Source: Branchiostoma floridae (Eukaryota; Chordata; Leptocardii; Amphioxiformes; Branchiostomatidae). Taken from it: a stretch of 64,000 bases of DNA. Within the stretch, counting starts at the first letter, position 1. The number at the start of each line of letters is the position of its first letter. Made by a program: the position numbers and the translations under genes. Where the stretch lies: the NCBI RefSeq assembly GCF_000003815.2, contig NC_049996.1:8164012-8228011 (forward strand), in the 5' to 3' direction. The notes below the pieces were generated by a model. That model did no database searches, was not told the DNA's origin, and saw nothing but the letters and a program-made list of their open reading frames with translations. Shown here in pieces: positions 11,801 through 63,590 of this stretch.

Positions 11801-14800
11801 ATGCATGCTCATGATAAAAACAAATTTGAGAAGACAGAAGCTCTGGCACTCGTGGAGAGGGAGCTTGTACTACACGCCAGCTAATAGGACCCTTCTACAA
11901 AGACTGCTAGTGCAGAGTCCCGTGTCTTATACATACCCTGCTTTACACGTGCATTCAGCCAATCAACAATGTAATGCTATGCAGTGGCTCTGCCTCCCAA
12001 AACAACAATACTCGGTGGGTGTAACCTTCAATAAAGAATAGTATAGCATTTTTCTTTGGCCATTTCTGTCCCACTGGGGCTGTTTTTGACGGAGGTGTTC
12101 AAAATAGAACAAGGGGTTCTACCTGGTTCTATTTGTTCGATATGCGTTCGATCGGGATCGGTCCATTAGGGTTTAAGTACCATTATTGGAAATGAATAAT
12201 TCCCAAAGGATTACTTATTATTAATTACAGCAATACAATCAAGGGCACAAAACGTCACATTCAAAATTCATCCGTCACCAGTAAAGGATTTTACCTTTAT
12301 TTTCATCTGGGCGAGTTCTGCCTCAGCAATAGCGTGCTTGTACTGAAGCTGTAAGAAAAAAGAACATCCTTTAGTAACTAGATACACATTCATGGACAGT
12401 CCCTTGGTATACAGACATGCTAAGTCTACAGAACAGACTTCATCTCAAAAGTTCATCTTGTAATGACTACAAACTGAAACATGATAAATATCATACCGTC
12501 CACTGTTGTGGAAAAGCTAAATAAATAAATAACTGAAATGTTATTTCAATGTTAACAGAATTATACCTACCACCCTGAACTTACCCTTATAAATAACCAC
12601 TACACATTCTAAATGTAATCTAATATAATTACAAAACACATAGGTCAGGGTCAACCTAGTTGGCAAACATTGAGCCATGGCAAGGGTATATTTTGGCAGG
12701 ATGGCAGGCTGGGTCAACTTTCTCACCCTCACATGGATGAAGTGTCAAAAATCACAATACAACTAAAGTAAAAGTAGATCTAAGTCATGATTCAGTTTTT
12801 TTTACAATAGGGGGGAAAGACTGAGTGTTTAAATTTGTTGACATAATGAAAAAGAAAAGCCACCAATATGGCCTTCCTGATTCAATAGAAACATGTAACT
12901 ATAGTTACTGATCTGAGGGTCATGATTGAAAATTTATTGAGGGGAGGATGCCCTGAGACCCAAGTGGCTTCGCCGTAATGAAATAGCTATTATAAGTTAT
13001 AAAATTATATGCTCTGAAAAAATCCTGGTGAGAACTCTCAATGCCATACAACAGGAATCTATAGGAGTGTGAGAACCCTGCCTCATATTACGATTCAATG
13101 GAGTTACAGGAAACTCTCCGCATGTTTTACCTCCTTCAGTTTGAGGCGTACTTGGTTGGCATTGTTCCTACTATAATCATAGGAGAACTGCTGCCTACCT
13201 GTGTCAGGGACCCCAGCAGCAGTATAAATCAAATAATAGATACCACTAATGCAAGACAACTATAAGCCTGTTCTACCTCCTTCAGTTTGAGGCGTACTTG
13301 GTTGGAGTCTGCATCGTCCATAGGAGAACTGCTGCCTACCTGTGTCAGGGACCCCAGCAGCAGTATAATCAAATACTGGATACTACTAATGCAAGACAAG
13401 AGGAAACTCTAAACGTCTTACCTCCTTCAGTTTGAGGCGTACTTGGTTGGAGTCTGAATCGTACCTAGGAGATCTGCTGCCTACCTGTGTCAGGGACCCC
13501 AGCAGCAGTATAATCAAATACTGGATACTACTAATGCAAGACAAGAGGAAACTCTAAACGTCTTACCTCCTTCAGTTTGAGGCGTACTTGGTTGGAGTTT
13601 GCATCGTCCATAGGAGAACTGCTGCCTACCTGTGTCAGGGACCCCAGCAGCAGTATAATCAAATACTGGATACTACTAATGCAAGACAAGAGGAAACTCT
13701 AAACGTCTTACCTCCTTCAGTTTGAGGCGTACTTGGTTGGAGTCTGCATCGTCCATAGGAGAACTGCTGCCGCTGCTCTCGTCAAGCTCAAACACATCGA
13801 TCACCTTCGGACCCTGCGGGGACTCGTCTGAATCCTCCGTACGAGTTTCTGTCACCGTCGCGCCCTGCAGGTTCAGGATCACCTGAGAACAGAGAAAAAT
13901 TTTAATTCTCTAAGAAAAAGAAAAAATTTTTAGATTTACAATTACAAAGAGAAGTACACCAAGCCTTATCACTGAAATGATTCTACATTGCAATACAGAC
14001 TTCAACAAGTTAGGACTTGGCCATATTCGTCAGAGGTCGTCGTACAATTTTGATGTCTTAGGAGTTTAAGCAGGCTGTGACAGAACCAACTGCCAACATA
14101 AATCTAAGACAAGAGCTGAACGTTTTATGATACCTTCAGGAATGCCCTTACTGTAGTTTGCCAAAGTATGACAATTGTACGACAAATGTAACTACACCCT
14201 TAGCAAAAATTCAAACAATACAACTCATGCAATTAAGTACATTAAACCTGCAAAGAAGTCAACTGTCGATTCACTGAATGTTGAGTTGAGCTGAACTGAA
14301 CTGAAGAGGACAAGTAAAGCGACTGTTGCAAAGGGTGTTCAGGACATGCGGACATTCCATTGTGTCATTCGTCAATGGTTACTTCCTGGAAACTTTCACT
14401 ACAAGTCGTCTAAATGATGCCTGGCCCTTACTCGAACTATTTGCAGGTCCTTGAGAAGAATTTCTTCGCAATTAAGTAATTGACAGATTGTCCTCTTAGT
14501 AACTTTGGGCAACATACTTTTGGAATGTGACAGCTCTTAAACACAAATTCTACACTATTGACATTGGCTAATTAACCTGTAGCACCTTTGACACAAATAT
14601 GTGACATGTACCCTGTATGCCAGACTGTTTCCAGGGCCAAACAAGCCAACTGATTTATACCCTGATAAACGATGAGCACGATAGATATTGAGATCAGGCT
14701 GGGGGTATGGAATCCAGGCTATATGACAGTCATGCAAATACCTGGCAATACAGCATCCATAAACTTCTAAGGGTTAAAACCAAACAGGAAACATGCAGTG

Positions 14801-29800: not shown

Positions 29801-32800
29801 GGGGATTTTACAGTAACGCCACTGAGGTTCACAGTGATAGCTACGCCCTGCAATCCTCGTCATAAGAAATGCGGCATCAGAATTAATACTTTATGGGAGC
29901 AATAAACAAGCGATTTATACATCCACAGTAAATAAAGGCACAATCAGTCTAGCTCCCTTCCCCAGAGAACTACAGTGAGACATTTCCATAAACAGTAATT
30001 AGGGCATGTGTACCTAATCCTGTTAAGGTACAGACAACATGTTCGGTATTAGACAAAACAGTGTTTACAGAAAAAGCAGATTATGTAATTAGAGAATTTA
30101 AAGCAATTTGGCTGTACAATTTTCTCATTAAAAGTAAGATTGCATTTTTAGTACACATAATAATTTAGTTTTGCCCATACCTTTTATTAAAAAATTACAC
30201 TTCTAGATTACAAATTGATTATATTACATCTATTCAAATCATACTTCTACATCAAAATTACAGTGTAAAATGTAATATTTACAATGTAATCATATAAAGT
30301 GTAGTTTACTGGTGCAAATCTTGTAGCAGATGGTCCATGAAATGCTTTATTTTAAACTTACCAATTAACTGTGTCTTTGTCACTTTGACTAAATATAAGG
30401 TGTCAACCACAGGGAATACTATTATTATCATCATACCCAAAGTAGCAGCTTTTTGACTGGCATATTAATAATTGCCCCAATTTACTTTGCATAATGTAGG
30501 AAATAGATTACACAATAAACTCTCATGTCTATACTTTGTTGAAGGTTTTCAATGACAACACACTTTAACCATCCCAACTCAGCTTTACCATATTAATCAA
30601 CTGTGATGATTAAAGGGTAAAAGTAACATAATTTCAAAAGTAAAAATCAAATTAAAACATCACAAACGGAGGCATTTTCTTCTTAAGGAATTCCGAACCT
30701 GCATAACAAATCATACCCTTTTAATCCATTGAAGTACACATTTGGGAGAGCAGGCTTTCCCATATGTAGCTTCCAATGTCAACTATTACCACATCTTTCA
30801 ACAACTAAAGGGTTGGTCCTTAATTGGTGAAACGTCTGCTAACTGAAGTTGCACACTGGGGGATACAGAAACTCAAATTGGATTCAGACTCAATTCTTCA
30901 CATCTCCGAGCTGGGATAAGTTTCTTACATTAGTTGTTAATGTACTCTCTGCACTCTGGGCTAAACAAGCCAGACTGTCTGTCTACCATTCAATATGAAA
31001 CCCAAAAGGTGGTGTCTGAACTTACTGTAATGTGATTTGTAAAGGCAGGCCAATAATAACCTGGGCCTTGTTCACATGTCAAAGGATGCTCCGGGCTACT
31101 GAACTGATAAATATTTGATGTAGGCATTTTGTGTTGACCGCATTCTTTGGAAATATCATAATGTTAACTCTGTCCATATGAAAGAATTACCATTAATACT
31201 TTCTAAACATGAAGGCAAAGATCAGGTACAAAATAATGTTGCTATTTGTGGCTGACTGCATTGGTTTAAATACTGTGTAATCAAAGCAGACATTGTGATG
31301 TGAAATAGTCTGAATTTTTCAGGTAGCTAATAAGGTGAACATTCTGCATAATGTTGCTTTCTTTGCACCATCATTCTACTTTTACTGCATGAAAATTATC
31401 AAAACTGAAAATACATATGATGCACTTGAACTGGGGAGATACATACATGTATGTACACCCCCCCCCCCCCCCCCAAAAAAAGCATGACTTCAAGAGTATT
31501 TGAAACAACATTTTTGTCTAGTTCTACTTGAAAACAAATACACTTCACAATAAACCTTTAAACTATTATTTCATTTATATCATTTCATGGTACAGATTCA
31601 GACTCAGAGATTGCCAGGTACTAGATACATAATACCTGACCTGTACTTTGGAAATATTCTAGCCCTGAAAACTTCCTGGCCCATGGTAGAAAATCCCTTT
31701 ACATCCACTGTGAGTTGACCCACATACATCTACTTACTTCAAGATTATTACATGGTTCCGCTTTACTACAGATAACATTTTGATCATTATTAAGTGTGAC
31801 AAATAATGATAAAACATAATTCTTCTTTGTCAGAAGCATTTCTCAATCTAAGCACTATGTCCTCTGCAAATAGACCTGGACACATTGCTCTGTAATAGAT
31901 ACACTTGGGAAGGCTCTTGGAGTAAGTGACTCTACTTTTTCCTGCACATACATTGGTAATGATTATCCCTATGTTTGTGCTGGGGCACCATTACACAAAC
32001 CAGAATGTCACGTACATGGGGATTTAGTTCTCAACATGGATGGCAAACATTGAGACTTCTTGATGTGATTTAGTGAGTGACCTATTTACTTTTCTGAATT
32101 TCGCTGATGTGTATGCCCAGAAAATTTCTGAATTTCGCTGATGTGTATGCTCATAAATTTTTCTGAATTTCGCTGATGTGTATAGAAATAAATCTTTTTG
32201 GCAACAATTTTTTCTACAAATTGTAATTGGAACATCCGCAAAAGCATATACTTTTGCAGGTAAACAAAGCACCAGTAAGGGTAATACCGTATCTATTCAC
32301 TGCGCTGAAAAATCATTTGTATAAACACAACAGGAATGTTTTTCAACACAAGCTATCCCATTATAGCCAACTATGCTATATTTTAGATCTAGAACTTTGC
32401 GATGACATGTTTTAAAGAAAATACATTTTAAAGATCCATACGCCATTGTCCATACATACTTGTCATAAGTACCTACAAAAACCCCTTGACTTTTCAAGTC
32501 TAGGCCCAGTGTAGTGGGTCTAAGCTTGCCGCTATTCTGCTCTGTTGTTCTGGGAGGCTGTGCTTCAACAGGGCGGGTCAGGAGTGTTGGCACAGAGCAT
32601 ACCGTGGTTATCCTCCATATCTGCTGACCTGTTAGGGCCTTACATATCCAGGCCACACCTCACGCTGCAACACGGATCTACAAGCAGATGTAAGGTCTGG
32701 CACAGAGCATACCGTGGTTATCCTCCATATCTGCTGACCTGTTAGGGCCTTACATATCCAGGCCACACCTCACGCTGCAACACGGATCTACAAGCAGATG

Positions 32801-35800
32801 TAAGGTCTGGCACAGAGCATACCGGGGTTATCCTCCATATCAGCTGACCTGTTAGGTCCTTACATATCCAGGCCACACCTCACGCTGCAACACGAATCTA
32901 CAAGCAGATGTAAGGTCTGGCACAGAGCATACCGGGGTTATCCTCCATATCTGCTGACCTGTTAGGTCCTTACATAACCAGGCCACACCTCGTGCTTCTA
33001 CATGGATCTACAAGCAGATGTACGGTCTGGCGCAGTGTTTTACAGAAGTTTAACAGGTTTTGTACATCTTTCTAGTGGTCTGTGTCACAAGGGAAAGTAA
33101 GATGCTGCCCACTAAAATGGCAATGAAAAAGCCTACAAAGAACATCTGCTTGAAGACTACTCAATGCAACTACAATGAGAAATATGTCAAGACAACCTGA
33201 AAAGAATAACCAACAGTCTATAGTACAAGCTAGAAGTCAAATTGAAATTAGGATTGTACAAAAAGTATATGTAAGATAAATATGTTCATTACATATCTGA
33301 TAGTATTCACTTGCATTAATAGAGCATTATCCGAAAATACAATGAGCCATTTTACCACAAATAATCTTCAACATTTGTGCACACTGGAAAGATTAATGTC
33401 CTCAACAACAAAAGACAGCAACGCAGACTGAACTAAAAAGTTTGAATGGGATAGAGATAGTGGTTGAGGTTGGGGCTCTTTGAGTGTCAGGCACGGCAAT
33501 AATGCCAGCTGTCAGTAGTTTTTTCCACCAACCAAAAGACATCAACTTTTTCCATTTTAAGCCCCTGAACAGTCATTGGCATATATATGATATACTTCAC
33601 TGAAGCACTATGCTGTGACTGTCTACTATCCGTTCTAATAGATTTGCTGTCTTTTCACAATATAATCATAACGTTTTATCCAAAATATACATATTCAAAA
33701 CTGAAGCAAGCAGGTGCAGGCAAGTGTGAAACTCTGTATTTCACAATGGCCATAAATTATCTCATACAAAACACTGGATAATTTCCTTTTTCATAGGTAC
33801 AAAGGGACTAAAAATTATGCTCGCCTACATGAAAGACAATCTCTCTAAATATTCAGTCTAAGCAATTGAGGAGAATCAGTTGTAAACAATGTCAACACTG
33901 TATATACGACTTCCCAACATTTATACTTGGTCCTTTAGAACTCTTTGTGTACATGTAAGTACAGTATATAACAGTTGAATGTTATGGTAATAAAGGGAGG
34001 GAATAGTTTTAACTTTCTTTGTCACCTAATCTGTCCCCTTCTTTATGCTTAACTGCCTGTTTTCATTTTTTCGTGCACTGGAAATCTTGAAACTATCACA
34101 ATGGTTTTATTTCCCCAGTTCATGATATCAGGAATATTTGTTTGACTACTGCTATATAGTAATAGCAGCTACATTTGCAAACTTGCTTTCTGACACAGGA
34201 AAGTTCACAGGAAAAACCTGGGGACATAAAACCCCCCGCAAAAGTTTCAAGGTTTACAGCATTTTAAAACATGCACATTGTGGCAGGTGGAATTTCAGAA
34301 GCCAGTACAGCGTCAGCGTGCAAAATACGCACTTGCACACTTGCACATTGCAACCACTTTTTGCTTGGTGCAACTTACTTCTAAACTCAGGTTGCACAGG
34401 ATGCCAATTAGATTTTGAGCCTCTAAACTCGATTTTGTTGTCAATTTACTTGGAAGAAATAAATTGACCGAGGCAGCTCCGTTTAATATCAGCCAAACAT
34501 GTATGTATTGTACCTTTTTTTCAGAAATTAGTGAATTGTATGAGGTGGTGCAACTTGAAATTCAGTTGTGCAACCTAGTTTTTGCCCCAGGTTGCACACT
34601 GTGCAACCTGGCTCAGAAAAGTATTTTGTACACTGAGCATAAAGGAGACAGATGAGGTGACACAGAGATAGTCAAACTATTTCCTCCCTTACTGACACAG
34701 GAAAAAGCAACGACAAGTCAGGATTTATAGCCAAAAACATCCCCTGCATGGAACCCCTGGAAATTTGGGAAGCGTATAACCGAGGAAGGAGGAAAGAGCT
34801 CCCTTCTCTGGTTTCTCTGTTTATATTTCAGATTTTTGCTTCAAAGCAAAGAGACTACAGTACTCCTAAGTCTCAAGACTTGTATTTCAGGAAAAAAATA
34901 AATACACTCACTACAGAGGATATGGCAATACACCATATAGATTAAAGGGAATTCATACACGGCATTATGTATTCAACTCAAAACATTCAATGTACAAAAT
35001 GTAATTCTAATTGTTATGGACAAATTAGGCTGGGAAAAGGTAGCTAATTAGAGCCTTCTTTTGTTAACGATGGATAATTTCTAATCCCATGCATAGGCAT
35101 GCTCTATTAACTAGGGCAAAGCACATGCTCCATAATAATCAATTACTTATTAAAGGTCTCAAACAGAGTGTACTGTTCGCATAATTGATGACCTTTGTCT
35201 ATTAGCCCCCCTCCCACTGCTACTGGGTTTACAAACAGTATTATACAGAAGGGCGGGGAAAAGTGCATCGTCCATGGCAACCCACCAGGTAATATTTGGC
35301 CAATGGATGAACTAAGAACATCGGAATCTACACGATCACAGGGTCACATGGTGTTTTATTGCAGCCGCATGCCAGCATGCAAGCGAACAGGCCCTTTTTT
35401 AGCACGCAAGAGCACACATATACACAAACACAAGAACACACGCTCCCTCGCCATGCCTAGGTAAAAGTCACTGCCGTACCGGCTTGGGTAGGGGTCGCCA
35501 GGGGTCATTACGGTACACACCGGGACGAGGGGGCTTGCTCAGAGCCTTCATGGCCCTCCCGGCCAAAACTCGGGTCCCATCACCTAAACTGGCACCCCGG
35601 GCGTGGGGAAGACAGACAGGGCGAGTGGCAACGCCAACAGCACAAAAATGGCTGGTATTTCCTCAACACCAAACCCCCCTAACCTCACAGCTATTAATAC
35701 TGCAACAACGGCTCCCACAATATTTTCATACCAAAACTGTTGATATGACAAACATCAACTCTTTTCTTCATTCATATTCCTGACACATTAATAGTCTTAC

Positions 35801-49400: not shown

Positions 49401-52400
49401 TGTCACCTTTAAGAAATGCTGCATGCTTCATGATACGGTACCACGAATGTGCCATACAGACTTGTATGGTGGAATGAGATACAGATACGATGACAGATAC
49501 AACTTATACCGTATAGATGTACATGTCATATCCTCAGAGCACCACAATCACTTCTAACAACATACGTTAATCGTCCCCCCTGTAAGTTTGAGTCTGTGTG
49601 CTCGGTATAGTGCAGGCATGCAGGTAGGGAAAGGTCATATCTTAGAACAGAGTCTTGGAGACGAAGTCTTAGATGTACTGACCCTACGGTTGCCTGTCAA
49701 CGCCACCGATTGAAGCACGCTGAAATAGACTCATGTCTGTGTCCAATGTCATGTGAAAGAATGTCCTCTGCCAGTCCCAGGTCTCTCCTGTGTTTTTCCT
49801 CCGTCCCTTGAGTCCTGAGTTTGCGCTGTGTTTTTCCTTTGTCCCTTGAGTTTGAGTCCTGAGTTTGAGCTGTGTCCAGCCCAGGTTTGAGTCCCAAAAG
49901 TCTGTGATGTCTGCATGTTTGTGTCATGGAGAATGTAAGAAATGAGTAAAGAGAAGTCTTGTTGCTGATCACAAAAATTGCCACTAAATTCCTTCCCAAT
50001 ACATATATGTATCATACTATGATATAAGCCATGAACTAAATGGATCCAGCTTATATACAGTCCTTGATGGTCTGTTTCTCATTTTCTTGCATGATTTTCT
50101 TTTTTCTAGGGTGTACATTCACGTTGGATCAGAACGTGGGTACTCGGCCCAGCTACAGCAGGCAGCAGGACAGGTCGCCGTCTGCGAGCTCAACCCGGGA
50201 ATCCGGCCGGTCGTTTCTATCGACAGCAGCATTCGTAACTTTGACATGAACTGGTGCATGTTCAAACTGTTTGAACCTGAAGAAACGGCCACACCTGCAC
50301 CTCTTGCACCAGGTAATTATCTACATTGTATATGAATTGTTCTTCAAAAATCTTTTTTTTTCCAGCTTCAGCCACTCTTGTTGCACCAGGTAATGAATGC
50401 TCTTCAGGAAGCATTTCATTTCTTTCAGTTTTGGCTGCTCCTATCTTATTTGTTGGTTCCTGGGTTGTAGAAAATAGCTGTGTTTACAGCTGACACAGAG
50501 GAATGTTCATGCTATTGCATACTCTGCTTACCTGAGTAAGACAGTCATGTTTTGATCTGATTTATTCAGGTATATAAAAAAAACAGGACTGCCCAACAAG
50601 CTGGAGGCTGTTTTAAAGGGATAACCCCACTAACTGCACGATTTACAGCAAACGACATAAACGGTTACAATGTACAGTAAATGAGTTTACAGATACATGT
50701 ACATGATGTAGTTTTTTAATGTACTACATAGATACATACATACATACATACATACATACATACATACATACATACATACGCCATACAAGTAAGGAAAAGC
50801 ATGTGAAGACGGTTTGTGTTTACTTCCTAGCCAAGCAAGTGTTTTTTTATCTATGCTGTGACCAACACCTCATCATTAGCAGCTGTGCTGAACTGAATAA
50901 CATTTTACAATACAGCACGCTGGAATGTAGTGCAGAGGTGGGCATTAACTTTTCATTTGAAATACTACTAGTACCTGATTCAGATCCTATGCTGAAGTTG
51001 TTTTTCTCTGTGTGTTGCAGGAGCAGGTGTGATGGGTGGGGTGTGCGTATCCCGTGAGTAAGGCATGTTAAGGTCCTGTGCTGAAGTTGTTTTTCTCTGT
51101 GTGTTGCAGGAGCAGGAGTGATGGGTGGAGTATACGTACCCCGTGAGCTCACGGACACAGGAAGAGACTTCACCTTGTACTTCATCCTCATCATCATCAT
51201 CCCCTGCATCATCCTCATCGTGCTGCTCCTGCTACTCACCTACATCATGTGTGGACGGAGGCAGGGAGTGTAAGTAGACGGGATTTTCTTCTGATACTTT
51301 TAATCTTGAAGTACATGTATAGAGAATCTAATATGACAGTGAATCCTGAGCTCCCACTCCAGGACTTGTTTTCATAGTCCAGATCTATGATTGGTCCTTT
51401 TTTCAAAAAGTAATATCCTTGTTTAGAGATGCATCAGGCCACAAAATATTACAATATAAAAATGCCATACACTGAATAAGTGTATGGCCCTTTCTGAAGC
51501 TGTTTTGTTTTCAGGAAAACAAATATTTACTTCAAACAAACATCATAGAATTTGTATTACACAAAGTTACCTAACCAAGACTCACAGTATTATTGACTTG
51601 CTGCACTTCTTCCCCTGCAGTCAGAAGCGTGACCAGGCGACCCCAGCCATCCAGCTGACCCACCACGCCTCTATCCGTGAGGCCAGTAAGGAGCTGCGTG
51701 ACCTGTCTCAGAAACGGGACATCAAGCCGCGCTCCACCCTCCCCATGTTTAATGCTGCCAGTCCTCACAGGGGTGACGAGGGAACCCCACTCACCAGGGC
51801 TCCACAGTATGTACATGTATTTATACTGGGGAAGAATTACACTCATGTTTTCAAATTGTTTACTAGTTTGGATCTCATACATATTTTTTTGCTGTCTTGG
51901 CACATTTACGTATTACGTATTGAGGACAGTACAGGATCTTTGAAAAGGCTTTGTCTAGCAGACAATAATATGAAGTATTACCGTCCACTAAGGCATTAAA
52001 ATCTTATGTTTTCTACATTATTGAATTCCTGAACAATGAACATGTATACTGACCCGTCCCCTAGAAAGTACATTTAATAATTGATATCATAGAATTCAAA
52101 GCGGACTATCACTTGACAAGACCAATGATAAATTGTTTTATATGAAGCTAATTTACAGCTTTGATCAACAGTTAAAGATACATGCAAGTTGTTGTTTCCC
52201 CATAATGTACATGAATATAATTAATCATTGACGAGGAAAAAACTGTACACTTACTGATTTCTGACAGTGATTGGATGGATATACATTGTACTTCTATCGA
52301 ACAACTCTTTTGACTAAAAATGTATACTGTTCTTGTATTGTAGTCTCATACATACAATGTATGTAAGGCATAAATAGCTGCCTCAGCTAACAGCAATTTA

Positions 52401-58570: not shown

Positions 58571-61500
58571 CTACAAGGGAACAAAACACGCAACTTGGGA
58601 ATTGTTGCCCAAAACATATTCAACCTTGTCAAATTTGTAATTCTTGACACCATGACAATTTTTTGTGTAACCATGTTCGTGTCAGTGTGTGTGACTGCAC
58701 CTGTGTCACTACATGTGTGTGCGACTGTGTGTGTGTGTGCGTGCATGCGTGCGTGTGTGTGTGTGTGTGTGACTCACAGTGTCTATGTGTGATCTGTGCA
58801 TCTGTCTGACTGTGTGTGGGTGTGTCTGACCAAGGAGGGTATGCATACATGAACATTATAGTAACCTATCATAGTTGACAATGTTTTGTCTTTGATTGCA
58901 CCACTCTAGAAGAAACTAGTCAGTGCATCTATTTGTATAAGGAGAAGAGCTTTTTTGTTAACTACATACTGTATTTCACTGTATAACATACTCAATTGTC
59001 TTATAATATACAACAATTTTTGCATATGCATCATACCTCCAAGTCCTCTTCCTTGGCACTGATGTCATTCTCCAGCATCCCCAGGACCTCCTCCAACATT
59101 TCCTCCCCGTTAGCTTCCCCTAGCTCCCGCTCCTGTGGGTCAGACACCTCCCTCTTTCCGGAACCTGCCACAGCTAGAATATTGTAGTCAGAAGATTAGT
59201 ACAAACAATTGCTGTAAAATCAATTATGGGTGCTAGGATATTTGTTTTACTCCAAGGAGAGTGAAATATAGTATGTTTTTGATCTGCCTGTCTGTTTCTG
59301 ACCTAGTTTTGCAAGCAATTAGGGGTAAAGGAGCAAAGTTAACCATTTCGGATTGCCTTCTTCGCTTTCGTGCATGTTTTTGACCCACTTTTGCAGAGTA
59401 GTGTTTAAAGAGGTGAAGTCTGCCATCTCTGAGGGCCTTGTTGGACTTTGCTTTCTTCATTTACTCTGCAAGTGAAATTCAAACCCGTCCAAACTCCCGA
59501 ACTGCGTTTTGATAGATTGTCATACTCCATCAAAAAAGTCATTATTTGAGCCTAGTCAATTTTATCTAACCCATATTTGGACAATTGACTAAGAAGTAAT
59601 TAACTCTTGCATGGAATGTATATGTTGAGATCTTCTGTAAAACAAGTTATTGATGATAGTCTGATTGCAGTGAGAGCGCAGCGAGATCAAGTGAAAAGGG
59701 CCTTACCGTAATACCGAGCCTTGAACCCACGCTCTTTCTTAGAGTGATCCGTGGTGAAGACAACCTCCATGGTCCTGCCCGAGCTGGTGACCGCACCAGG
59801 ACGGGTTGTGCCGGTGAACTTTCCCAGCTGCTTGTTGTTGCATCCATCTAGAACGGTGACGTGGTCAAAGTTGTTCTCCAGGTCAAAGTCCAGAAAGCTG
59901 AGGCGCACGACTTGTCCTGGTGGGGCACTGATGAACCACCTGACAGTACAAATGGACATTATATAAATACGTCACATTTAGTTTTTCATTAAAATGTAGA
60001 CCACATATGATCACAATAATTACATCCTGACATTGCCAGGCCCAATGTCTGTTGTCATTGACAACCACCCTGGCCTATGTTCCGTCCTTCCCGCTGCGTT
60101 AATGCTGGTCTGTCATCAGCCAATCAGATCCCCCTCCTGTTGCTCTGGGAGGGAAAGTTTCTGACCAATTACATCGCCGCTTATGGTCAGGAGATGATCT
60201 GATTGGCTGGCAAGCTCTCTCCAACAGTGATCTGATTGGATGAGGGCTGGCAAACTCTCTCTAACATTGATCTGATTGGCTGAGTGCTGGCCAGCACTAT
60301 ACGAATGCAGACAAATGATGCTTGAAATAAACAGACTGCAGACATGATATGAGAGGATGGATAGTTTAGGCATTTCTAACTCACAGAGCTGGATCTAGTT
60401 GAATGAATATCAAAGTGTAACATTTAAGATAGAGTAGTCCTTTGTAGGAAAGAGAATAAAACTACATGTATAATGCAGCAATAAGTATGTCATACATGCA
60501 TCACATGTCATCTGACCTGCATTTCTGGTTGTCGCTGTAAGTTTGTGGGTAGCCGGGAGAGATGAATACACCGGAAGAACCAGGAAGATTTCCTCCACAA
60601 GAGTCAGTTACTATTAGAAATATGAATGATTATATGATAATGAATTTCAAATGTGTGCATGGAGGCTAACTGCATGTAAATAGTACATTACCTAGTAATA
60701 GCACAATAGCTGAACAAAGTTTTAGAAAAAACATTTGAGATCTAACAAGCTAATGACTGAGTCAGTGCACTGCAACATCAATTGTTATTTGACCCAATAC
60801 AACAGAAGCCGTTTGATTGCATACCCCATTTGCCATATTTCGTTATTCAGCTGGAAATAGCACCAACTTGGAATTTGGGGATTCTGTGCAGTTAACAGAA
60901 GTATACAGTAATCCATTGAGCAAGTAATAAACCAGTCTGTATTAAACTGGCTTTTACAGATTTATCTGAGGAAAGCTTACGTTGGAGAGATGTTTGGCAG
61001 ATGAAGTTCTGTTGAGTATCACACCCTTGGTCGTTCCACTTGTTAAGTGGGTCTGACCAGATCATACCACAGTCTTCGTTCCCTCCGGCCTGGTTTGGTT
61101 CCCCGGGTTTCCAGGGCTGGAAGCTTCCCAGGCGGGTCCCGTCGGCATACCGCCATCCTCCTTCCTGGCTCCGGTCGTCAAAGCCCAGCCAGAACCATGC
61201 AGCCTTGTCGACCTGATTCTTCAGGGTGATCAGGAACTGGTGGGTGGCCTGGTCGCGTGGCATGGCCAGACTCCCGCCCGCAACCCGACATGCCGCGGCA
61301 GCAGCATCGTACGACTTCTTCTCGTTATACGCCTTGTAGCAGTTGGGTCCATGCTGACTGAAGCCCGAGGGACAGCCTGAAATGAACCATGTAGAAAAGT
61401 GTTCATGTCAATGGGAGAAATGTTAAGAAAACAGACATAAGGTTCAAGATTCCTCAAGATTTCAAAATGGAAACAGCAAATGTCAATACATGAGCTGTAC

Positions 61501-63590
61501 CTCACCTGTTGGTATGACTTGACAGATGAACTTCCTTTCGGCGTTAGTACATGGTCCGTCATTCCAGGTGTTCTTTTTGGTCGGGTGACTCCCAGGGAAG
61601 TACTCGGCACAGTCCTCGTTACCTGAGTTGTTGGGTTCTCCTGGACCCCATGCCCTGAACCTTCCCAGTGCAACGTTATCCTGCCACATCCAGCCTCCCT
61701 CCTGACGGTGATCAGTCAGCCCGAAGCGGAACCAAGCGGTGTTGTCGACGGCATTCTTAAGGTAGATGAGGAACTTGTTGGTGGTGGTGTCGCGGGGCAT
61801 GGCAAGGGTTCCCCCGGCTGCAGAACAGGTCGCAGCTGCGGCGCTGTAGGTTTTCTTGTCGTTGAAGGCCTTGTAGCACAGATGACTAGGTTGATGGTAA
61901 ACATACCCGGCTGGGCAACCTGTTCAAGAACGAATCAGAATAATCGTTTGAAATTTATACCGTCTATAAGCATTGGTAGCTTTGATGTGAATAATATTAG
62001 CTTTTGCAGAATAGTTGAACACACGGTCAAGAAAAGGACAAACAAGAATACTAATAAGCACACCTGCAGGTATCATCTGACAGATAAATTTCCTGTCAGT
62101 CCGAGAGCACGGAGCATCGTTCCATGAAGTTGGGAAGAACTCGGCGCAGTCCTCATCGCCAGCGTTGTTCGGTTCTCCCGGGCCCCATGACCTGTAGCTC
62201 CCGAGGGGCGTGCCGTCTATCCACTCCCATCCTCCCTCCCGATGATGATCCACTAGGCCGAACCAGAACCAGCCAGGCCGATGCACGGCATTTTTCAGGG
62301 TGAGCAGGAAGGCGTTAGTACTAGCGTCCTTTGGCATAGCGAGTGTCCCACCGTCAGCTGCACACGTTGAAGACGCGTCACGAAAGCTCTTGGGGGTGCT
62401 AAAGGCCTTATAGCAGATGCCGTTATGCATCTGGTAGCCACTAGAGCAACCTGAGGGGAATAAAGATGACAGAGATAGGTTCTGTTCCCGACTTGCAAAA
62501 TGATGGCACCTTCATATTAAGGAGGTTTCGCTGCCCTTTTCAGCAAAATCTCCTTCGGGCTTAAACTCCCCGGAGCGCTAAATATGAGATCGGCGGGCTG
62601 AATGCCTTGTGCCCCGAATAAACTCGCTAGCTGCCCGATCCTGTCTGGCACCCAGGGTATGATTTGATATTCGGGCATTGATAAAAGGTATACTCACCAG
62701 CTTGTCGTGTTTGGGGAAGCCAGGATTCGCCACCAAATTCTTCGGTCAGCTCGCCATTCTGGTGGACAAAGTCAAGAACAAGACACATAGATTATACTTT
62801 CTGTAATACAAAGTCATACTGAAATTAAAGCGGAGGTCTTCTACAGTCCTATGGCCGCACTTGGGGCAATTACTGTCATATTGTGGTCACCTGAATGGCG
62901 CCAAATAGCAGTTCGCCCCAGACACTTGCGACAGTCGTATTGAGGTCACCTGAGTAGAGCCGAAAGATAGCTCGCTCCAGACCCTTACGAAATAGCCCTG
63001 CCTGTTGTAAGCAAGCTCCTTGAAATTCAGCCCCTGGCTGCCAAGAGAGAGCAGTTGGCCCACCCAATACCAAAATGTACCCTTGGACATTACCCTACCA
63101 AGCCACACCCTTGCCGTATGTCCGAATCACCAGGATGACATTATTACCTTTTCCATCTCGTCATTATCTCGACCAACCTGACCATCGATCAATTCTGTAA
63201 AATCAAATTTCAAAAAAGATCTTAAAGTTTTCGATATCATCATTGACAGCTGTACTCCTGAAACTATTCATGATACATCTTACTATTAGTAAGGAGCCTT
63301 CATCAGAAGAGCTCCTAAGTCTTACTTAGCCCATCATATCAGTCTATTTTCAGTCGTGCAAGTTGTTTTATACAGATGTATGCTAGTTGCACTGGTTACA
63401 AAGATCAATGACATCTAATATATATGCCCTTGCAAAGACTACCATAACTTAACTCAGCTATCTGATAGTATGACTCAGGTAACATCAACACTATAATTAG
63501 AAATTCTACCTTCCAGTCGTTCGACAAAGGAGTCAACCTTCTCTGCGATGGACAGGTCCCTTTTCTCAAGAGCGGCAAACGACTCCAGGA
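58553..63590 (-). CDS. Secreted triple C-type lectin/CUB protein, N-terminus beyond right edge
   Basis: Ten exons are in frame. In order: a charged helical segment (VLESFAALEKRDLSIAEKVD), linkers, three long-form C-type lectin domains each in one phase 1-1 exon, one CUB domain in two exons, and an acidic tail. All three lectin domains keep EPN and WND, the calcium-site motifs associated with mannose-type sugars. Two lectin domains share LAMPRD and RKFICQ. The protein is probably secreted and oligomeric, acting in carbohydrate recognition or innate immunity, but the signal peptide is outside the window. The CUB domain lacks the usual second cysteine pair. Its 3' end converges on the sarcoglycan gene. 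The domain call is firm; the biological role is inference. Confidence 0.92.
58683..58830 (+). repeat. (GT)n-rich microsatellite
   Basis: Long imperfect TG runs; both strands give meaningless Thr/His or Cys/Val open frames. Confidence 0.95.
59037..59173 (-). CDS. Lectin gene: acidic helical tail
   Basis: 137 nt, phase 1 in and phase 0 out. Encodes AVAGSGKREVSDPQERELGE, then an acidic helix MLEEVLGMLENDISAKEEDL. No known domain is recognised. Confidence 0.78.
59707..59939 (-). CDS. CUB domain, second exon
   Basis: 233 nt, phase 2 in and phase 1 out. Encodes RWFISAPPGQVVRLSFLDFD, VTVLDGCNNKQLGKFTG and KERGFKARYY, the CUB end. The position normally holding Cys in G-x-F-C-G is Thr; a lone Cys sits in DGCNN. 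Confidence 0.92.
60116..60300. repeat. About 50-bp repeat rich in CCAAT boxes
   Basis: TGATCTGATTGGCTGGCAA and CTCTCTCCAACA recur about three times in the CUB intron, giving several ATTGG (inverted CCAAT) elements. Confidence 0.65.
60517..60610 (-). CDS. CUB domain, first exon
   Basis: 94 nt, phase 1 in and phase 2 out. Encodes DSCGGNLPGSSGVFISPGYP and QTYSDNQKC, the classic CUB start with Cys 1 and Cys 2. Confidence 0.92.
60981..61376 (-). CDS. C-type lectin domain 3
   Basis: 396 nt, phase 1 in and out. Contains LAMPRDQATHQFLITLKNQV, EGGWRYADG, GEPNQAGGNEDC, KWND and NFICQ. It keeps the sugar-site motifs but is the most diverged of the three. Confidence 0.95.
61506..61919 (-). CDS. C-type lectin domain 2
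   Basis: 414 nt, phase 1 in and out. Contains GYVYHQPSHLCYKAFND, LAMPRDTTTNKFLIYLKNAV, EGGWMWQDN, GEPNNSGNEDC, TWND and RKFICQ. It is slightly longer than the others because of an insert (PGSHPTKKN) before WND. Confidence 0.95.
62064..62450 (-). CDS. C-type lectin domain 1
   Basis: 387 nt, phase 1 in and out. Long form with an N-terminal Cys pair (CSSGYQMHNGICYKAF). Contains EGGWEWIDG, GEPNNAGDEDC (EPN), SWND and RKFICQ. EPN plus WND predicts calcium-dependent mannose/GlcNAc/fucose-type binding. Confidence 0.95.
62698..62758 (-). CDS. Lectin gene: linker exon
   Basis: 61 nt, phase 0 in and phase 1 out. Encodes NGELTEEFGGESWLPQTRQA and leads directly into the first lectin domain. Confidence 0.75.
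63148..63194 (-). CDS. Lectin gene: short helical exon
   Basis: 47 nt, phase 1 in and phase 0 out. Encodes LIDGQVGRDNDEMEK between TTTTACAG and GTAATA. Confidence 0.7.
63510..63590 (-). CDS. Lectin gene: helical N-terminal exon
   Basis: 81 nt, phase 1 in and out. Encodes LESFAALEKRDLSIAEKVDS and FVERLE, an amphipathic charged helix that could oligomerise the protein. Earlier exons lie right of the window. Confidence 0.75.

What the first reader, a model, noticed from the sequence alone, without database searches (positions are those of the whole stretch)
13130..13711. Five-copy 145-bp array that multiplies a 21-codon neurabin mini-exon
Each copy has a CAG acceptor, a 63-nt open phase-0 frame ([21 protein letters not shown] type) and a GT donor, with 82-nt introns. 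If spliced in series, 21-residue blocks would be added at the junction of linker and coiled coil. If mutually exclusive, the region acts like a variable exon. Array length may differ between alleles, giving protein length polymorphism from a minisatellite.
Basis: partly seen in the sequence, partly recalled or inferred. Interest (0 to 1): 0.82.

Follow-up and report, generated by a model that had tools for sequence, protein, structure and literature searches.

The report
Amphioxus exon-edge minisatellite with retroelement tail
Inside an intron of what looks like a lancelet neurabin gene, a 145-base repeat has copied the end of an exon four extra times together with the tail of a jumping gene; it resembles a kind of repeat already known in lancelets and is probably spliced out, so it most likely does not lengthen the protein.

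Summary
The array is real. After neurabin exon 7 (minus strand) lie four further 145-bp units. Copies 1-3 hold 63-nt open phase-0 exons; copy 4 is 68 nt, frame-shifted, with a stop, so 'each copy open' is wrong. The 3' part of each 'intron', with the CAG acceptor, is the 3' end of a dispersed retroelement (39 other places listed). Host and element borders coincide, with 8-10 bp shared at one junction. The mini-exon acceptors are weak (28th-31st of 132 AGs on a recalled human matrix), and all five codon changes against exon 7 are non-synonymous. Best reading: a 'mirage', the boundary-spanning minisatellite described in amphioxus Adh, TnC, globin and PGBD5 genes, reported not to disturb splicing; exon 7 then joins exon 8 directly. 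New here is a retroelement tail at the duplication junction, giving each unit an acceptor as well as a donor. My idea that this element family habitually makes long target-site duplications failed its control (4 of 38 copies against 98 of 1079 random points). No transcript or second allele was available.

The parts
13712..13882 (-). Neurabin exon 7 (171 nt, phase 0); its last 60 nt are the source of the repeated exon piece. An AG at 13909 is a possible in-frame alternative start
   Evidence: Acceptor TTCTCAG|GTG scores 8.95 (third of 132 AGs), the AG before 13909 scores 9.69, donor GAG|GTAAGA 6.39, on a recalled human matrix; frame reads VILNLQ...[10 protein letters not shown]
13567..13629 (-). 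Copy 1, 63 nt, open ([21 protein letters not shown])
   Evidence: 1 non-synonymous change against exon 7
13422..13484 (-). Copy 2, 63 nt, open ([21 protein letters not shown])
   Evidence: 4 non-synonymous changes
13277..13339 (-). Copy 3, 63 nt, open, identical to exon 7 over 60 nt; donor GTAGAA
13131..13198 (-). Copy 4, 68 nt, frame-shifted with a TGA inside; donor GTAAAA
13630..13711 (-). Intron-like spacer 1, 82 nt (33 nt of host intron, then antisense retroelement tail)
   Evidence: spacers 1, 2 and 3 identical
13485..13566 (-). Intron-like spacer 2, 82 nt
13340..13421 (-). Intron-like spacer 3, 82 nt
13199..13276 (-). Intron-like spacer 4, 78 nt, diverged
13617..13678 (+). Retroelement 3' end in unit 1 (62 nt, antisense to the gene); gives the CAG acceptor on the minus strand
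   Evidence: About positions 5-66 of the query window 13613-13682 match 39 dispersed places
13472..13533 (+). Same element piece, unit 2
   Evidence: place of unit 2
13327..13388 (+). Same element piece, unit 3
13186..13248 (+). Same element piece, unit 4 (94% match over 70 nt to unit 1)
   Evidence: end coordinate
12349..13130 (-). Rest of intron 7: opens with a diverged copy of the 33-nt host intron start (24 of 33 nt align) and no detectable element after it
   Evidence: element against the stretch after it: score 18, reached by 1135 of 2000 shuffles
12295..12348 (-). Neurabin exon 8 (54 nt, [18 protein letters not shown]), start of the coiled coil
   Evidence: Acceptor scores 9.94, best of 132 AGs; frame

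Best explanation
This is a mirage: a minisatellite that arose when the end of neurabin exon 7 plus the first ~33 nt of intron 7 was duplicated, with the 3' end of a 5'-truncated non-LTR-type retroelement lying exactly at the duplication junction; the X-element-X unit then expanded, recently at the exon-7 side. It sits in intron 7. The spliceosome most likely joins the exon 7 donor (13712) to the exon 8 acceptor (12348) and removes the whole array; the mini-exons are near-misses with weak acceptors supplied by the antisense element. Shown: the array, the element piece as a dispersed repeat, the coincidence of host and element borders, weak acceptor scores, the stop in copy 4. Inferred: the class of the element, insertion with an 83-93 bp target-site duplication as the founding event, unequal exchange as the expansion, and skipping in mRNA.
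For: Array and copies. A segment of the unit is dispersed: 39 other places among 43 rows (815 first-look candidates, 40 scored). The copies share a core that ends in ACTAC, many go on with TAC-type repeats, and they begin at different points upstream, as 5'-truncated elements do. Host homology stops at GGCAGCAG in exon 7, where the element begins, and after the host intron start in intron 5 no element is detectable, i.e. the order X(element X)4. Mini-exon acceptors score -1.1 against 8.95 and 9.94 for exons 7 and 8. Copy 4 has a stop. Codon changes 5 non-synonymous, 0 synonymous, while spacers 1-3 are identical. Published mirages: boundary-spanning repeats in Adh3, BflGb6 (150-160 bp units; 6 and 3 units in two haplotypes), BflGb9, TnC and PGBD5, reported or inferred not to disturb splicing (passages).
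Against: No RNA evidence. Copies 1 and 2 have donors as strong as exon 7's (6.39 each), and copies 1-3 keep frame and phase. The splice matrix is human and recalled. The founding event as a long target-site duplication is not backed by the family: 4 of 38 other copies have long flanking repeats of score 42 or more (5 of 38 if the 18-23-nt repeat of L046 at score 36 is counted), which is no clear excess over the 98 of 1079 random points at 42 or more (10.6% at 36 or more); strict borders were met by 0 of 38 copies against 73 of 2658 random points. The left border in intron 5 is diverged (24 of 33 nt align), so it is less sharp than the exon-7 border.
Confidence: 0.77

Rival explanations
1. Serial or alternative cassette exons: copies 1-3 are spliced into neurabin mRNA and add 21, 42 or 63 residues (three heptads each) before the coiled coil; copy 4 is skipped.
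For: Copies 1-3 are open, phase 0, with AG and GT; donors of copies 1 and 2 equal exon 7's.
Against: Acceptors rank 28-31 of 132 AGs; the phase match has a one-in-three chance; 0 synonymous of 5 codon changes; published mirages are reported or inferred as skipped.
Confidence: 0.1
2. Poison-exon or noise-splicing array: occasional use of copy 4 or of the downstream donors gives transcripts with early stops, lowering neurabin output in proportion to array length.
For: Copy 4 stops in frame; reading exon 7 into spacer 1 meets a stop after 11 codons; repeated strong donors.
Against: No transcript data; same weak acceptors.
Confidence: 0.09
3. Tandem duplication by microhomology between exon 7 (GGCAGCAG) and a copy of the element that already lay in intron 7, rather than an insertion with target-site duplication.
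For: 8-10 bp shared at the junction; short tandem duplications are common in the fetched loci (98 of 1079 random points).
Against: It predicts the element also after copy 4, where none is detectable; a loss would have to be added. It concerns the origin, not the function, and does not exclude the best explanation.
Confidence: 0.3
4. Assembly artefact: the number of units is an error of the assembler.
For: The globin paper reports an aberrantly assembled mirage in an older draft (supplement legend), and PGBD5 repeat numbers differ between two records.
Against: Units differ by point changes and a block replacement, and the array lies inside an 18.6-Mb contig.
Confidence: 0.04

Closest known systems
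Amphioxus 'mirages' (Adh3, globins BflGb6 and BflGb9, TnC, PGBD5)
   Same: Tandem repeats that span an exon/intron boundary in an amphioxus gene; unit size close to BflGb6 and BflGb9 (150-160 bp), and, as in BflGb6, homogenised inner units and a diverged edge (passages of PMC3087553, PMC3902484).
   Different: Here each spacer holds a retroelement tail that gives every unit an acceptor as well as a donor, so that complete mini-exons appear; the main text of the globin paper has 0 occurrences of 'retrotranspos' and calls the origin of mirages unclear.
Antisense retroelement exonisation (as with Alu; recalled)
   Same: An antisense element supplies an AG acceptor next to a real donor.
   Different: The exon body is host coding sequence, not element; use of the site is not shown.
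RTE-clade non-LTR retrotransposons
   Same: Short 3' end with trimer repeats, and relatives (67% identical over the 54-aa query) with 1059- and 1064-aa open frames; RTE-1 has a 1066-aa ORF and RTE elements have short 3' UTRs of trimer-type repeats (passages of PMC1291365).
   Different: Reverse transcriptase domain not shown for this family.
Mutually exclusive or cassette exon clusters (recalled)
   Same: Tandem exon copies with matching phase.
   Different: One copy has a stop, acceptors are weak, and no sign of coding constraint.

Membership tests
Amphioxus mirage | Minisatellite-like tandem repeat that includes an exon/intron boundary of a gene | tested here: met
Amphioxus mirage | Genome is an amphioxus | tested here: inconclusive
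Amphioxus mirage | Inner units homogenised, array edge diverged (as in BflGb6) | tested here: met
   spacers 1-3 identical, spacer 4 and intron-5 start diverged
Amphioxus mirage | Copy number differs between haplotypes | not testable with these tools
   one assembly, one locus
Amphioxus mirage | Splicing of the host gene undisturbed | not testable with these tools
   no RNA; acceptor scores only
Mutually exclusive or cassette exon cluster | All copies open and in phase | tested here: not met
   copy 4 is 68 nt with a TGA
Mutually exclusive or cassette exon cluster | Functional acceptors | tested here: inconclusive
   scores -1.1, rank 28-31 of 132 AGs; matrix recalled
Mutually exclusive or cassette exon cluster | Coding constraint on copies | tested here: inconclusive
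   5 non-synonymous, 0 synonymous changes in copies 1-3; no sign of constraint, but few changes
RTE-clade retrotransposon (the element in the spacer) | Short 3' end with short tandem repeats | tested here: met
   core ends in ACTAC and many, not all, of the 41 hits go on with TAC-type repeats
RTE-clade retrotransposon (the element in the spacer) | Long ORF with endonuclease and reverse transcriptase | tested here: inconclusive
   relatives with open frames up to 1064 aa; no RVT_1 hit seen, by eye, near the long-frame ones among 150 scored of 4467 candidates; letters could not be fetched
RTE-clade retrotransposon (the element in the spacer) | Target-site duplications beyond background | tested here: inconclusive
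   Long ones not beyond background: 4 of 38 copies against 98 of 1079 random points, 30 of them in one locus; strict borders 0 of 38 against 73 of 2658. Short duplications of about 10 bp, as PMC1291365 gives for the RTE element SR3, were not tested
Neurabin/spinophilin gene | PP1-docking segment and PDZ domain | tested here: met

The most novel reading that the evidence does not exclude
A single retroelement insertion both duplicated an exon end and supplied the missing acceptor, so that each expansion step adds a ready-made 21-residue (three-heptad) mini-exon; alleles with different unit numbers then make neurabins of different linker length, an exon nursery seeded by a retroelement.
Probability: 0.07. 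Interest if true: 0.72.

Novelty: new variant of a known kind. Interest (0 to 1): 0.36.

Why it matters
The globin paper says the origin of mirages is unclear. Here the duplicated host piece is bounded by a retroelement tail, which offers one concrete origin and explains how a duplicated exon end can gain an acceptor and become a potential exon. It also warns gene annotators: an automatic predictor could read copies 1-3 as exons; the PGBD5 paper reports an annotation that took such repeats as an exon. If the mini-exons were ever used, exon birth and protein length variation could be watched in one gene.

Tried and rejected
Long target-site duplications as a habit of this element. Of 41 element hits in L009-L046, three were dropped before counting (L017 twice, duplicates of L016; one of two in L046), leaving 38. 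Five (L042, L032, L013, L037, and L046 with a 23-nt repeat) beat all 1404 mismatched pairs and were at empirical 0 to 0.0021. But 98 of 1079 points chosen away from the element in the same loci reach score 42, the level of the first four (30 of the 98 lie in L045; without it 68 of 995), L032 and L042 lie inside and L037 next to other tandem repeats, and strict borders were met by 0 of 38 copies against 73 of 2658 random points. Rejected as a general claim; kept only for this locus as an inference. In one search the neurabin array itself passes the border rule, but its one end runs into the next unit's element, so that is not an independent proof.

Hidden element after copy 4: looked for, none detectable. 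A weak resemblance of intron 5 to the spacer at 67-111 nt after copy 4 (6 of 1000 shuffles in 160 nt; 45 of 1000 over the rest of the intron) was left as unclear.

RNA family in the window: no Rfam match at gathering threshold. Reverse transcriptase near the long-frame relatives: not settled. Pfam on the exon 7-8 peptide and on the element's C-terminal peptide: no family. A test of whether the published globin mirages also hold an element could not be made: the globin search did not complete and no letters remained.

Papers: PMC3087553, PMC3902484, PMC1291365, PMC2887409, PMC13295347 and PMC4042849 were seen as passages only; the Adh and TnC papers were not seen; PMC1458424 is not held. That this neurabin array is not in print rests on searches of one open library only; the one paper with both 'amphioxus' and 'neurabin' is unrelated in the passages shown.

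Full report
What is there. On the minus strand the window carries a neurabin/spinophilin gene: the PP1-docking and PDZ exons match PDB Neurabin-1 (9gsu_C, E 3.6e-67) and Pfam PDZ_5 and PDZ. I take exon 7 as 13712-13882 and exon 8 as 12295-12348; they join in frame as ...[28 protein letters not shown]. An AG 27 nt upstream (13909) scores a little better than the one at 13882 (9.69 against 8.95) and also keeps the frame, so exon 7's start is not certain; this does not touch the array. From recall, vertebrate neurabin has the same block without an insert (VFEL...KFKELQIKHAVTEAE); no call tested this.

The array. Tandem Repeats Finder reports 13127-13771, period 145, 4.4 copies, 92% matches. Exon 7's tail is the first, and four units follow in gene direction: copies 1-3 are 63 nt and open, copy 4 is 68 nt, out of frame, with TGA. 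Spacers 1-3 are identical, 82 nt; spacer 4 is 78 nt and diverged. Against exon 7 copy 1 has one codon change, copy 2 four and copy 3 none; all five are non-synonymous. That is compatible with no constraint (five are few) and gives no support for a selected peptide.

The spacer is more than half retroelement. A search of the window's own 513-Mb genome (431 contigs) with the array finds the array once, and finds a ~62-nt part of the unit at many other places. With a 70-nt query, 43 rows are listed: 4 are the array's own units and 39 are dispersed; 815 candidates were seen in the first look and 40 were scored, so the number is a lower bound. The copies share a core that ends in ACTAC, which many (not all) continue with TAC-type repeats. 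By similarity among the 41 hits they begin at different points, at most about 155 nt before the core, apart from two pairs (L016/L017, a segmental duplicate, and the two in L046). This is as expected of 5'-truncated non-LTR elements. Upstream of the core some (L031, L046) read like GRPRKTWMECVRKDIKVCGL...; a protein search finds relatives, 67% identical over the 54 residues, whose frames run to 1064 and 1059 aa. RTE-1 has a 1066-aa ORF and RTE elements have short 3' UTRs of trimer-type repeats (passages of PMC1291365).

The junctions. The element lies antisense to the gene, so the CAG before each mini-exon is element sequence. Exon 7 and the copies agree from GGCAGCAG onward and differ just upstream of it; the element copies carry the same GGCAGCAG, some GGCAGCAGTT, so 8-10 bp are shared at the junction. 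At the other side, intron 5 after copy 4 begins with a diverged version of the 33-nt host intron start (24 of 33 nt align) and then goes on without a detectable element (element against that stretch: score 18, equalled or exceeded by 1135 of 2000 shuffles). The order is thus X(element X)4, with X about 83-93 bp. This is what one insertion with a long target-site duplication, followed by expansion, would leave. A tandem duplication between exon 7 and an older element copy in the intron would leave the element after copy 4 too, unless it was lost. For another LINE (L1), duplications of up to several hundred nucleotides are mentioned in a passage of PMC1291365, which gives 10-12 bp for the RTE element SR3.

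A general claim that failed. I asked whether other copies of this element are flanked by long duplications. Of 41 hits in loci L009-L046, 38 were kept. Five (L042, L032, L013, L037 and, with a short repeat, L046) beat all or nearly all of 1404 mismatched pairs. But 98 of 1079 points chosen away from the element in the same loci have repeats as strong as the first four (9.1%; 30 of the 98 in L045), against 4 of 38 (10.5%). Strict border rules were met by 0 of 38 copies and 73 of 2658 random points, and L042 and L032 lie inside other tandem repeats. So the family does not show the habit; these loci are simply rich in short tandem duplications. The long target-site duplication at neurabin remains an inference from this locus alone.

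Would the mini-exons be spliced? On a matrix of human splice frequencies that I recalled, exon 8's acceptor scores 9.94 (first of 132 AGs between 12200 and 14000) and exon 7's 8.95 (third); the four mini-exon acceptors score -1.1 and rank 28th-31st. Donors of copies 1 and 2 equal exon 7's (6.39); copy 4's is 2.81 and copy 3's (GTAGAA) is not among the 14 best. The CAG|GTAGGC at the start of each mini-exon itself reads as a fair donor (4.71) (all). Reading exon 7 into spacer 1 meets a stop after 11 codons, and inclusion of copy 4 stops translation. The likeliest outcome is exon 7 to exon 8 with the array removed. This is inference; no RNA was at hand.

What is known. 'Mirages', tandem repeats that span exon/intron boundaries, are described for amphioxus Adh3, globins BflGb6 (units 150-160 bp, 6 and 3 units in two haplotypes) and BflGb9; the paper says their origin is unclear, that many units hold AG/GT signals, and that Adh3 data and globin RT-PCR suggest normal splicing; it also offers a model in which a unit becomes an exon (passages of PMC3087553). 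The PGBD5 paper adds TnC and PGBD5, with 2 or 7 and 3 or 6 units in two genome records, infers rather than shows normal splicing for PGBD5, and notes an annotation that took repeats as an exon (passages of PMC3902484). The neurabin array fits that kind. New here is the retroelement tail at the junction. A second case in this window is an 89-bp duplication over the acceptor side of an exon that I take for a sarcoglycan alpha/epsilon transmembrane exon; the Pfam support comes from a piece about 3 kb upstream (Sarcoglycan_2_C, E 6.2e-6), and its unit was not searched for dispersed repeats.

Organism. Its size, and 15 contigs of 17-35 Mb seen among C1-C19, agree with Branchiostoma floridae as I recall it.

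Verdict. Observation partly confirmed; series-splicing reading unlikely; a new variant of a known amphioxus repeat kind. Interest is moderate: chiefly a concrete hint to how mirages and new exons may start, and a warning for annotation.

Noticed in passing
window 50985-51147 (+): 89-bp tandem duplication (1.8 copies) over the acceptor side of an exon that reads like a sarcoglycan alpha/epsilon transmembrane exon; the upstream copy ends in a donor-like CCC|GTGAGTAAG. A second mirage in the same window (Pfam Sarcoglycan_2_C on a piece about 3 kb upstream). Unit not searched for dispersed repeats.
   Followed up: partly
window 32588-33035: 110-bp tandem array, 4.1 copies, 95% matches, between the first neurabin exon and the PDZ exons.
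   Followed up: no
window 13131-13198 and 13422-13484: Differences among the exon copies cluster in the same middle part: four changes in copy 2 and a 15-to-20-nt replacement in copy 4, while spacers 1-3 are identical. Possibly template-switch or conversion events; not tested.
   Followed up: no
L009-L046: 98 of 1079 random points in these fetched loci (9.1%; 30 of them in L045) have a repeat of their left flank within 1200 nt downstream, so short tandem duplications are common here. Not compared with another genome.
   Followed up: partly
L042:3639-4129: A 271-bp tandem duplication whose second copy is interrupted by the same retroelement tail, with no long target-site duplication of its own seen.
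   Followed up: partly
window 60892-62511 (-): Three C-type lectin-like open frames in a row; the one tested matches Pfam Lectin_C (E 6.5e-17).
   Followed up: no
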